From: an uncultured Granulosicoccaceae bacterium
Lineage (GTDB): Bacteria; Pseudomonadota; Gammaproteobacteria; Granulosicoccales; Granulosicoccaceae
DNA: 64,000 nt
Reading direction: 5' to 3'
Assembly (NCBI GenBank): GCA_938007995.1
Contig: CALLLW010000006.1
Coordinates: 1-64,000 of the forward strand
A program made the position numbers and the translations under genes. The notes under the pieces are model-generated. The model ran no database searches and had not been told where the DNA came from. It was given only the letters and a program-made list of their open reading frames with translations. How positions within the stretch are numbered: position 1 is the stretch's first letter; each line of letters begins with the position of its first letter. Below, piece by piece: positions 6,464-59,555 of this stretch.

Positions 6464-7465
6464 TTACTCAATGTGCGAGAGAATGCCGTCAAGTTCATCC
6501 AGCGAGTTGTAGCTAATCGTAATATCGCCCTTACCGCCGCTGGAGTGTTTAAATGATACTTTGGCGCCAAGCTTTTCAGACAACTGTGATTCAAGGGCTC
6601 TGATATGGCTGTCCTGTTTGTCCTTGACCACTTTGCTGCGATTTTGCTTTTTTGCAGGAACCCCGTTGCGGGCCAGTGCTTCAGTCGCACGCACGCTTAA
6701 GCCCTCGATGTAGACTTTCATCGCAATGGCATGTTGATCATCCGGGGCCAGTGTCAGCAGTGCGCGAGCGTGGCCCATTTCAATTTTACCGGTGGCGAGC
6801 ATATCGGAGACACGTTCATCGAGATCCAGCAGGCGAATCAGATTCGATACAGACGCTCTTGATCGACCGACTGCTTCGGCAACGGCCAGATCAGTCATAC
6901 GAAATTCATTTTTTAAACGGTGTAGCGCGCGCGCTTCTTCCAGCGGGTTCAGATCTTCGCGTTGAATGTTTTCAATCAGGGTTACTGCGGCGACTGAGCT
7001 GTCGTCCATTTCCCGAACAATGGCAGGAATTTTTTTAAGTCCGGCCAACTGTGCCGCACGCCAGCGTCTTTCACCGGCAATAAGTTCATACCCGCCGCCA
7101 CGCCTGCGCAGCAGTATCGGTTGAATCAAACCTTGTGCGGTGATTGAATCTGCCAGTTCCTGCAATGCTTCGGGGTCAAAGTGCACCCGTGGCTGGTAGG
7201 TGCCACGACTGATTTCGTCCACCGGTATATCGGTCACGCCGTCTTGCGCCGCGCTGCCTGCCTCAATTTGCCCGGTTGGCTGCCGGCCTTGCGATTGGCT
7301 TGGCGATTGGCCTGGCGATTGGGTTTGTGTTAGCTGGGGCGCAGAAGTGCTTTGATTATCAGCGTCGGAAGGCTGTCTTACAGGTGCTACCGGGGCTGCG
7401 ATATCAACCTCCTTTAGTAACGCACCCAAACCCCTGCCCAAACCACTTTTTTTAGTTGTTGCCAC
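6464..7465 (-). CDS. parB: Chromosome-partitioning protein ParB (CTP-dependent parS clamp)
   Basis: Binds parS near the origin and slides as a CTP-gated clamp, acting with ParA to segregate origins. 333 residues from a GTG start at 7463-7465. Parts in order: N-terminal ParA-contact motif KSGLGRGLGALL (7-18); a low-complexity Gln/Ser/Pro linker (about 36-70) containing three in-frame 12-bp repeats; the ParB/Srx domain with the CTP-binding GERRWRAA motif near residue 131 and ENIQREDLNPLEEA; a helix-turn-helix (LAVAEAVGRSRASVSNLIRL); and a C-terminal dimerisation domain. Downstream of parA with a 44-bp gap. Two parS-like sites occur in recF, 13 kb away. Confidence 0.97.
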   Translation of the reverse strand: MATTKKSGLGRGLGALLKEVDIAAPVAPVRQPSDADNQSTSAPQLTQTQSPGQSPSQSQGRQPTGQIEAGSAAQDGVTDIPVDEISRGTYQPRVHFDPEALQELADSITAQGLIQPILLRRRGGGYELIAGERRWRAAQLAGLKKIPAIVREMDDSSVAAVTLIENIQREDLNPLEEARALHRLKNEFRMTDLAVAEAVGRSRASVSNLIRLLDLDERVSDMLATGKIEMGHARALLTLAPDDQHAIAMKVYIEGLSVRATEALARNGVPAKKQNRSKVVKDKQDSHIRALESQLSEKLGAKVSFKHSSGGKGDITISYNSLDELDGILSHIE

Positions 7466-40520: not shown

Positions 40521-40572
40521 GTGATACGTAAAGGGTCCAAATGTAGTGTTGAAATATTCTTGTTAATCGTCC

Positions 40573-40602
40573 TACATGCTTGCCAGACAACGAAAGCATG
40601 TA
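40573..40602. repeat. Inverted repeat downstream of lysA and the AAA+ gene
   Basis: TACATGCTT (40573-40581) and AAGCATGTA (40594-40602) are perfect 9-bp inverted copies around a 12-base loop. They lie between the convergent 3' ends of lysA and the AAA+ gene. There is no T-run, so it may be a weak terminator, a protein site or a boundary of the inserted segment. Confidence 0.6.
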
Positions 40603-40612
40603 TTTGCAATGG

Positions 40613-41842
40613 CTAAACGGTCAGCGTCTCCAGTAACAGGTTTTTTTCAATTAACTGTTCGTTGTAGCCGCGCATAATTACATATGGGCGGAGCAATGGC
40701 TGAAGGAATCTATATTGGTATCCGCGCTCCTGCCCAACTTTGTCTAAAATTGGCCCTCTTTCTATTTTGACGAATTCACCCAACTGCCTGGAGTAGTTTG
40801 AAATAGTTACTGGACGGCCGAGTATCTTGGCGTAAATGGGAGATATAGCGGCAGCGCTAAAAAAGCCTTTTTCATCTGGTTGAGTCAACGCGCAAGCAAG
40901 TAACACTTCTCTGAATAAATTGGTTGGTTTTGTACTTCTAGTCGCTGTTAAGAAAAGATCTGTAATAGAGCTATCCACCTTTGACAAAATCTTTGATAAG
41001 CCACACATAAAATCATCACTGGTTATTTCTAGCCTTCGATCTTTGACACAACTAATAGCAGAAGCACTGCCAAGTAAGTGAGCATAGCCAGGTAGCCCTT
41101 GCGCCATGCAGACAACGAGATCAAGGATGTCATCCTCTAACTTCATGTTAAGCAAATCCATACGCTTGATAACTATATCTTTGACTTCACCAGAACCTAG
41201 TGTAGGGAGTTCAATTTGATCTATGTTTCTGACTATTGATTCATGACCCTCAAAGAGTTCAGCTACGCTATCCGCAACACCAACAAGTATTATCGTCGCG
41301 TCCGACCCATAGTCCGAGAGATACTTGATTAGGTCTGCCATCTTCACTTTTGATTCATCACAAGCAACTCGATCGAATTCGTCGATGATTAGAACAACCC
41401 TCTGCGGTCCTATCGCATCGATAAGCTTGTAAATTTCATGTGGCGTTGGGTCATCGGATAGGATCTTTGATATAGGTTCTCCGTCTAGCATCGCTTCATC
41501 AAACAGGTTCTTCCAGATAGAACAAAAATTACTATCTTGCGTGCAATTCATTTTAATCGGCAGGAAAAAATCCGAACGTTGTAATATTCTATCCTTAAGA
41601 ATATTGGCCGCGGAACTTTTGCCGACGCCTCTATTGCCATGCAGTACAACGTGCTCACCTTTTTGAAACACTGCATCCACCATCCGTTCAAGCACTGCAA
41701 CACGACCAGCGAGGAATTCTTCCTCGGTGATAGGAGTGTGGGGAGTAAAGTAATTCCCAATGGCCACTTCCAAGGACACCCAATCCTTTTCATTGACGGG
41801 TTGGGTTCTTTTTTGAGACAGAATATTCAATAACTTACACAT
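40613..41842 (-). CDS. Orc1/Cdc6-like AAA+ ATPase, accessory
   Basis: 409 residues. P-loop GNRGVGKS at 69-76, Walker B VVLIIDEFD at 149-157, a sensor-1-like strand IILVGVADS at 184-192, and a lid helix region PGYAHLLG after 250, the pattern of the AAA_16/Orc1-like group. The C-terminal 110 residues could form a winged helix (SNYSRQLGEFVKIERG region), so DNA binding is possible but not shown. By eye it has lower GC than its neighbours (24 and 28 G/C in two sampled 60-base lines, against 34 in dapF). It lies opposite to and between lysA and dapF, genes normally adjacent, which points to insertion. The ATG at 41840-41842 has no ribosome site and sits inside an inverted repeat; a GTG at codon 22 (WVSLEV) with AAGGA upstream is a possible alternative start. 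Its function is unknown. Confidence 0.88.
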   Translation of the reverse strand: MCKLLNILSQKRTQPVNEKDWVSLEVAIGNYFTPHTPITEEEFLAGRVAVLERMVDAVFQKGEHVVLHGNRGVGKSSAANILKDRILQRSDFFLPIKMNCTQDSNFCSIWKNLFDEAMLDGEPISKILSDDPTPHEIYKLIDAIGPQRVVLIIDEFDRVACDESKVKMADLIKYLSDYGSDATIILVGVADSVAELFEGHESIVRNIDQIELPTLGSGEVKDIVIKRMDLLNMKLEDDILDLVVCMAQGLPGYAHLLGSASAISCVKDRRLEITSDDFMCGLSKILSKVDSSITDLFLTATRSTKPTNLFREVLLACALTQPDEKGFFSAAAISPIYAKILGRPVTISNYSRQLGEFVKIERGPILDKVGQERGYQYRFLQPLLRPYVIMRGYNEQLIEKNLLLETLTV

Positions 41843-41876
41843 GTTAGTAGTTGGGTATTCTCGAATACTAACATGT
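41839..41876. repeat. Nested inverted repeat over the AAA+ start codon
   Basis: ACATGTTAGTA (41839-41849) and TACTAACATGT (41866-41876) are perfect 11-bp inverted copies. Inside lies a second palindrome, GTATTC-TC-GAATAC (41855-41868). On the leftward mRNA the ATG start of the AAA+ gene is within the 3' arm. It may be an operator or a hairpin hiding the start codon. Confidence 0.85.
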
Positions 41877-41917
41877 ACCTAGTGTTAAGTAACATATAAT
41901 GCTGATTTAGTAACATA
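41864..41917. repeat. Three direct repeats with exact 21-bp period
   Basis: Plus-strand copies AATACTAACATG (41864-41875), TTAAGTAACATA (41885-41896) and TTTAGTAACATA (41906-41917) share the core TAACAT (41869, 41890, 41911) at exact 21-bp spacing, two helical turns. A fourth, inverted core is at 41841-41846 in the AAA+ start region. This resembles an iteron or operator array upstream of the AAA+ gene. Confidence 0.8.
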
Positions 41918-42264
41918 CCCTGTAAAGAAGGTTCGTTGGCGTTTCTACAGCCCTGCTGTTCCATTGGGAATTGTGTAGTAATCATTAGTGATCGCATTGG
42001 CTTACAAAAACGTCGATTAGGTCGATTGATTTTTGAGTCTCCAAGAACGCCAGTATTTTGGCGTTTAGTTGAATTTCCCCGTCAAAAGTCTGAATCATCG
42101 TCTATATAAATAGGATTTGTTGTGGTCTTTTGCGTGGAAATCATTTGTTGGTTTCTTACAAAAAGTATAAAAAACAACTATCTAATCGTTATAGGTGATT
42201 TTTTACTTTAACATCTGCTGCCTGACAAAAATCACACAACCCGAACCGGAATAGTGCGGCACTG
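41918..42264. other. AT-rich leader between the AAA+ gene and dapF
   Basis: No gene seen. It contains a direct repeat of GTCGATT (42012-42018 and 42021-42027), a perfect 7-bp hairpin (42046-42065), and AT-rich runs that may provide a promoter for dapF now that it is cut off from lysA; a TATAAA lies near 42167 but no good -35 was found. Confidence 0.5.
42046..42065. repeat. Hairpin in the dapF upstream region
   Basis: AACGCCA and TGGCGTT pair perfectly around GTATTT. No adjacent T-run, so its role is undecided. Confidence 0.5.
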
Positions 42265-59459: not shown

Positions 59460-59555
59460 GGAAGAACGTCTCGATCCGGTGACGGGCACGGATTTCAAAT
59501 CCGATGAGACGCGTTAGACGTGTCTGGTGGGTTCGACTCCCACGTTCTTCCGCCA
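59460..59555 (+). tRNA. selC: Selenocysteine tRNA, tRNA-Sec(TCA)
   Basis: 96 bases including the encoded CCA. The anticodon TCA (59495-59497) sits in the loop TTTCAAA. The acceptor stem has 8 perfect pairs (GGAAGAAC with GTTCTTCC) and the T stem 5 (GTGGG with CCCAC), giving the 8+5 helix of bacterial tRNA-Sec. A long extra arm with 7 pairs (AGACGCG with CGTGTCT, one G-T) is present, and the discriminator is G. The D-loop contains the CCGGTGA of tRNA-Sec. The anticodon stem has four standard pairs and an A-A at the fifth. It implies the cell decodes UGA as selenocysteine, so selA, selB and selD should be elsewhere in the genome. Confidence 0.97.

What the first reader, a model, noticed from the sequence alone, without database searches (positions are those of the whole stretch)
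41864..41917. Three direct repeats with exact 21-bp spacing upstream of the AAA+ gene
The core TAACAT occurs at 41869, 41890 and 41911, each time preceded by an AT-rich ASTAACAT-type context. A spacing of 21 bp twice over puts the sites on one face of the helix, as in iterons or cooperative operator arrays. An Orc1-like protein beside phased repeats is the arrangement of a replication or partition initiator with its binding sites, or of a self-regulated gene.
Basis: partly seen in the sequence, partly recalled or inferred. Interest (0 to 1): 0.6.

Follow-up and report, generated by a model that had tools for sequence, protein, structure and literature searches.

The report
Self-operator array of mobile ATPase
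The three evenly spaced repeats are real and are one example of a 21-base repeat array found just upstream of a widespread, jumping ATPase gene in many bacteria and phages, where it most likely serves as the docking site through which the gene's own product controls the gene.

Summary
TAACAT lies at 41869, 41890 and 41911, spaced exactly 21 bp; an inverted copy at 41841 overlaps the start codon of a minus-strand AAA+ gene (40613-41842).

The decisive test was family-wide. Among about 100 homologues from many phyla, phages and plasmids (mostly 30-40% identical), the 200 bp upstream show a self-match peak at lag 21: 42 of 101 loci reach 9/12 or better, against 5 of 103 control promoters from the same contigs (p about 1e-10). 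Other lags show no comparable excess. The repeat letters differ between loci (consensus about tTACTtg..aga) but spacing, orientation and position persist. In the window's own genome the paired site occurs only here.

The protein is modelled (pLDDT 94.5) as an Orc1/Cdc6-like AAA+ core plus C-terminal winged helix. It is absent from all 35 sampled genus and family relatives and is a lone insert between lysA and dapF. Relatives ride in phages, plasmids and, in 11 loci, inside IS1-family elements with terminal repeats (10 with 8-bp target duplications).

Best explanation: an operator array that travels with the gene and is bound by its own product (autoregulation). A replication or partition origin is not supported. 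Binding is inferred, not shown.

The parts
40613..41842 (-). Lone AAA+ ATPase gene, 409 aa: Walker A GNRGVGKS, Walker B LIIDEFD, C-terminal winged helix about residues 310-380
   Evidence: ORF; Pfam AAA_22 43.6 bits, above its cut-off of 27; AlphaFold2 pLDDT 94.5; fold matches
41896..41916 (-). Array copy 1 (distal): ATGTTACTAAATCAGCATTAT
   Evidence: direct repeat at lag 21; 21-bp array model
41875..41895 (-). Array copy 2: ATGTTACTTAACACTAGGTAC
   Evidence: core and spacing kept in L032
41854..41874 (-). Array copy 3: ATGTTAGTATTCGAGAATACC
41841..41849 (+). Inverted copy of the core (ATGTTAGTA) overlapping the start codon; arm of the perfect 11-bp inverted repeat 41839-41849 / 41866-41876
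   Evidence: the repeat finder I5
40521..42056 (.). Approximate extent of the inserted unit between lysA (ends 40520) and the dapF leader; exact ends not determinable
   Evidence: shared sequence with same-genus loci stops at the lysA end and resumes at about 42057; gene absent from all 13 other genomes of the genus and 22 of the family

Best explanation
The repeats are a 21-bp-phased operator array inside the promoter of the AAA+ gene, carried along with that gene as it moves between genomes, and bound by the gene's own product. Proposed working: the C-terminal winged helix reads the TTACT-type core; AAA+ domains of neighbouring protomers, two helical turns apart on one face, contact each other and make binding cooperative and nucleotide-dependent; the bound array overlaps the promoter and start-codon region and so sets (most likely represses) expression of the gene. 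Shown here: the array, its exact spacing, its conservation in position, orientation and period but not letters across the family, its uniqueness in the window's genome, the mobility of the gene, and a confident model with a winged helix. Inferred: that the ATPase itself is the binder, the direction of regulation, and cooperativity.
For: Lag-21 self-match of 10/12 or better in 20 of 106 upstream regions against about 1 at a typical lag. Against 103 upstream regions of other genes on the same contigs: 42/101 v 5/103 at 9/12 or better, Fisher p 1.2e-10; 19/101 v 2/103 at 10/12 or better. Two-copy motif likelihood 217 at lag 21 against 87-120 at all 15 tested lags from 15 to 32; lag 42 gives 144. 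Three-copy model 354 against 85-108 on shuffles. On held-out loci the best array within about 5 kb falls upstream of the AAA gene in 43/104 for lag 21 against 1-24 for six other lags. The array has a fixed orientation to the gene: 55 loci + against 8 -. The same kind of array occurs in hosts of many phyla with unrelated neighbours, so the gene's own product is the only common candidate binder. Array similarity follows protein similarity (Mantel r 0.25, p 0.001), slightly more for the winged helix than for the AAA domain (partial 0.16 v 0.01). In the 4.69-Mb genome the spaced pair occurs only here at 1 mismatch; weaker hits do not exceed the reversed-pattern control. Orc1/Cdc6-DNA complexes are among the best fold matches, winged helix included.
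Against: No binding data. About half of the homologues show no clear array by these methods, so some may have lost it or diverged. The correlation with the winged helix is weak and confounded by phylogeny. In archaeal Walker-type ATPases that match the model equally well (2qen, 2fna) the winged helix is not established as a sequence-specific binder (my knowledge). No sigma-70-like promoter was found on the minus strand here.
Confidence: 0.66

Rival explanations
1. The array is a nucleation or assembly site for a non-regulatory act of the ATPase, such as transposition control, target immunity, or a defence complex like TnsC, MuB or Orc, with regulation at most a side effect.
For: TnsC and MuB are high-ranking fold matches (Z 15-17). 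Eleven homologues lie inside IS1-family elements together with a transposase. Homologues sit in phage and prophage variable regions.
Against: Most homologues, including the window's, have no transposase beside them; the window has no IS1-type terminal repeats. Arrays lie specifically at the gene's 5' side with fixed orientation and often in register with -10-like hexamers, which fits a promoter function.
Confidence: 0.14
2. The array is the operator for a host or other locally encoded regulator, not for the ATPase.
For: About half of the sampled homologues have no obvious array; a promoter-bound host factor would give the same anatomy.
Against: The array accompanies the gene in many phyla and in phages of different hosts; no conserved regulator lies beside it; the site is unique in the own genome.
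Confidence: 0.1
3. The array is an iteron-type replication origin or partition site and the ATPase is its initiator, the element being an integrated replicon.
For: Iterons are typically 19-22 bp (my knowledge) and Orc1/Cdc6 is the best fold match.
Against: The unit is a single gene of about 1.5 kb on chromosomes, inside insertion sequences of 2.5-3.9 kb and inside phages with their own replication genes; no other replication gene is conserved beside it. Sequence score far below the Orc1/Cdc6 cut-off.
Confidence: 0.05
4. Chance spacing of a short AT-rich word.
For: The word is short and the region is 37% G+C.
Against: The family-wide signal at exactly lag 21 with shuffled, lag and neighbour-promoter controls.
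Confidence: 0.03

Closest known systems
Archaeal Orc1/Cdc6 initiators with origin (ORB) sites
   Same: AAA+ core plus C-terminal winged helix; best Foldseek matches, including DNA complexes 2qby and 2v1u; repeats beside the gene
   Different: Bacterial, phage or transposon-borne lone gene; 34 bits against a cut-off of 181 for TIGR02928; no origin context; repeat letters vary while spacing is kept
Archaeal Walker-type ATPases (2qen, 2fna)
   Same: Same two-domain fold, Z about 20
   Different: No described repeat array (my knowledge); not found by sequence
Transposition regulators TnsC, MuB, IstB
   Same: AAA+ fold (TnsC Z 17, MuB Z 15); some homologues share an element with a DDE transposase
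   Different: Winged helix present; no transposase beside most copies; array at the promoter and not at element ends
Iteron-regulated plasmid rep genes
   Same: Tandem 21-bp direct repeats upstream of the gene, likely autoregulation
   Different: Protein is AAA+ and not a RepA/RepE-type initiator; unit is chromosomal, phage or IS cargo
Kevin1 gene 30 (AAA-ATPase orpham of a cluster N mycobacteriophage, PMC6544188) and phrog_6841
   Same: Homologous protein (34% identical; phrog_6841 E 8e-42); Kevin1 has three cores at 21-bp spacing
   Different: Described only as an orpham of untested function; no mention of repeats in the passages read

Membership tests
Orc1/Cdc6 replication initiators | AAA+ core followed by C-terminal winged helix in one chain | tested here: met
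   AlphaFold2 model and Foldseek/VIA matches 2qby, 2v1u, 1w5t over residues about 20-390
Orc1/Cdc6 replication initiators | Reaches the curated sequence cut-off of the family (TIGR02928, 181.3 bits) | tested here: not met
   34.1 bits
Orc1/Cdc6 replication initiators | Binds an origin and loads the replicative helicase | not testable with these tools
   needs biochemistry; genomic context gives no support
Pfam AAA_22 (PF13401) | Reaches gathering score of 27 bits | tested here: met
   43.6 bits, E 4.6e-11
TnsC/IstB/MuB transposition ATPases | Encoded with its transposase inside a delimited transposon | tested here: not met
   Window copy: no transposase neighbour, no IS1-type transposase or terminal repeat in the genome, no terminal repeats. 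Met only in a minority of homologues
Iteron-controlled replicon | Several direct repeats of 19-22 bp beside the initiator gene | tested here: met
Iteron-controlled replicon | Rep-type initiator on an autonomous or formerly autonomous replicon | tested here: not met
   Only AAA-type Pfam matches; insert holds one gene only
Autoregulated gene with phased operators | Conserved phased sites in the gene's own promoter region | tested here: met
Autoregulated gene with phased operators | Gene product binds the sites and changes its own expression | not testable with these tools
   gel shift and reporter assay needed; only indirect support

The most novel reading that the evidence does not exclude
An apparently undescribed, cross-phylum family of solo mobile genes encodes an Orc1/Cdc6-like ATPase that assembles cooperatively on its own portable 21-bp array, whose letters co-vary with the protein while the two-turn period is fixed. 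It is repeatedly taken up as cargo by phages, plasmids and IS1-family elements because the ATPase-DNA assembly acts as a portable defence or element-control switch.
Probability: 0.3. Interest if true: 0.8.

Novelty: new variant of a known kind. Interest (0 to 1): 0.6.

Why it matters
If the ATPase is the binder, this is a bacterial and phage-borne Orc1/Cdc6-like protein whose DNA code can be read straight from about 50 natural arrays with a fixed 21-bp period. That gives a simple system for how an AAA+ winged-helix protein assembles on phased sites, a question otherwise studied in replication initiators and transposition regulators. It also gives a functional handle (promoter, operator, mobility) on a widespread cargo gene with no assigned function, and points to IS1-family elements that carry it.

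Tried and rejected
Own-protein scans of genome and viral collections found nothing; a five-sequence alignment then found 80 and 45 loci. Rfam: no match, so no known RNA element. Sigma-70 scan: no minus-strand promoter. IS1-type terminal repeats or transposase in the window's genome: none. DNA-level relatives on plasmids: none. The lag-21 excess in coding parts of the loci was rejected as codon periodicity, because lags 18, 24 and 42 are raised there too. The register of -10-like hexamers with the array (11 of 18 loci at offset 1-2) is treated as weak because the core itself resembles a -10 hexamer. In the shuffle control many shuffled loci also passed the per-locus posterior, so per-locus calls from that model are not used as counts; only total likelihood, self-match counts and held-out tests are. 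PADLOC: only sub-significant or partial ATPase hits, so defence is not shown. The full maximum-likelihood tree did not finish; the quick tree was used. Paper searches found no description of the family or of such arrays; only openly licensed papers are held.

Full report
Observation. TAACAT occurs at 41869, 41890 and 41911, exactly 21 bp apart. On the coding (minus) strand of the adjacent gene this reads ATGTTACTAAATCAGCATTAT / ATGTTACTTAACACTAGGTAC / ATGTTAGTATTCGAGAATACC. An inverted fourth core (ATGTTAGTA, 41841-41849) forms a perfect 11-bp inverted repeat with copy 3 and overlaps the predicted start codon. Only one other hexamer triplet with constant spacing of 8-59 bp exists in the 64-kb window.

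Context. The gene (40613-41842, minus strand, 409 aa) stands alone between lysA and dapF of a lysA-dapF-DUF484-xerC neighbourhood (gene names from my reading of the translations). None of 13 other genomes of the genus or 22 of the family has it. In the 12 other same-genus dapF loci the sequence shared with the window stops at the lysA end and resumes at about 42057 or further on. It is therefore a recent insert of about 1.5 kb. Exact ends, terminal repeats or a target duplication could not be recognised.

Protein. Pfam AAA_22 is met; the best curated name is Orc1/Cdc6 family, but far below its cut-off (34 against 181 bits). With 58 homologues from the collections AlphaFold2 gives mean pLDDT 94.5: an AAA+ core, a helical lid, and a C-terminal helix-helix-helix-strand-strand winged helix (about 310-380). 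Best structural matches are archaeal Orc1/Cdc6, including DNA complexes, and archaeal Walker-type ATPases (Z about 20), then TnsC (Z about 17). A shared fold does not show a shared function.

Family. Homologues (32-36% identical) lie on a Clavibacter and a Salinibacter plasmid and in phages Kevin1 and Cashline; more distant ones (25%) in a P2-like prophage between replication and portal genes. An alignment-based scan gave 80 loci in bacterial genomes of many phyla and 45 in viral contigs. Neighbours on chromosomes are unrelated housekeeping genes with no conserved partner; in viral contigs they are phage genes. The Kevin1 gene was described as an orpham in a variable region whose genes may act in immunity, untested (PMC6544188).

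The decisive test. I compared each upstream region with itself at every lag. Of 106 regions, 15-20 (by threshold) have a strong self-match at lag 21, against about one at a typical lag; the next best lags reach 4-7. Upstream regions of other genes on the same contigs do not show it (9/12 or better: 42/101 against 5/103, p 1.2e-10). A two-copy motif model is far better at lag 21 (217) than at any of 15 other lags from 15 to 32 (87-120), and next best at 42 (144), the double period. A three-copy model reaches 354 against 85-108 for shuffles and gives the consensus ttAcT...aga..t. Trained on half of the loci, it finds the best array of about 5 kb upstream of the AAA gene in 43 of 104 held-out loci, against 1-24 for six other lags (the high values are lags 19 and 20, which partly reflect AT-rich promoters). 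The lag-21 excess is confined to the 200 bp upstream; in coding sequence lags 18, 24 and 42 are equally raised. Clear examples: L134 with three TTACTTGG, L087 with two TACTTAGAGAA, Kevin1 with ATACTTGCAG / TTACTGGCAC / ATACTTGCAG, all 21 bp apart. The closest homologue, L032 (40%), keeps ATGTTA and TGTTA-TTAACAC of copies 1 and 2 at exactly 21 bp. The spacing is thus conserved where the letters are not, across proteins of 30-40% identity.

Who binds. Arrays occur with the same gene in unrelated hosts and contexts, so the binder must travel with it, and the only gene that does so in all cases is the ATPase itself. In the window's 4.69-Mb genome the spaced pair is found only here, as expected for self-control rather than a regulon. 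Array similarity follows protein similarity, a little more for the winged helix than for the AAA domain; this is weak evidence, as shared descent gives part of it. Cores lie mostly 50-90 bp before the start codon in one orientation, often in register with -10-like hexamers. The best reading is an operator array for self-control; repression is the more likely sign because the array and its inverted copy cover the promoter and start region, but this is inference.

Mobility. In 14 loci a divergent IS1-family transposase (PF03400) is the neighbour. Eleven elements of 2.5-3.9 kb are bounded by terminal repeats close to GGTAGTGGGTCAGTTTGAAATT, ten with 8-bp target duplications, enclosing the AAA gene. 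The IS-linked state is scattered on the tree (at least six changes forced by well supported branches); the window's nearest row, L032, is IS-linked (quick tree). The window copy itself shows no such ends. So the gene is cargo that several kinds of mobile element pick up, which fits, but does not show, a role in defence or element control.

Verdict. Observation confirmed; 'self-regulated gene with phased sites' supported by strong comparative evidence but not by binding data; 'replication or partition initiator' not supported. The repeats are ordinary in kind (phased operators). The combination of a portable Orc1/Cdc6-like ATPase with a fixed-period, variable-letter array across phyla was not found described in the papers searched.

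Noticed in passing
window 42145-42214: AT-rich non-coding element just upstream of dapF (TTCTTACAAAAAGTATAAAAAACAA..ATCTAATCGTTATAGGTGATTTTTTACTTTAACAT) is 87-96% identical in 12 other species of the genus, although DapF is only 61-78% identical and the rest of the intergenic region is not conserved. Single-copy in each; a weaker copy (82%) is near dapF in one genome of a second genus (L192). It has a rough inverted repeat (AAAGTATAAAAAA / TTTTTTACTTT). No Rfam match. Nature unknown.
   Followed up: partly
L050, L054, L055, L066, L076, L077, L078, L081, L087, L090, L130: IS1-family elements of 2.5-3.9 kb with terminal repeats near GGTAGTGGGTCAGTTTGAAATT and (in ten) 8-bp target duplications carry this AAA+ gene divergently to the transposase; I found no description of such elements.
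   Followed up: partly
window 41839-41876: Near-palindromic stretch over the start codon of the AAA+ gene, with an inner perfect palindrome GTATTCTCGAATAC; could act in DNA or in the 5' end of the transcript.
   Followed up: no
window 59460-59555: tRNA-Sec gene (anticodon TCA), so the organism probably uses selenocysteine.
   Followed up: no
window 7291-7322: GCGATTGG three times at 12-bp spacing, the only other evenly spaced hexamer triplet in the window; likely coding.
   Followed up: no
L028 3551-3874: In phage Kevin1 a HicB-like antitoxin gene lies directly before the AAA+ gene and its array.
   Followed up: no
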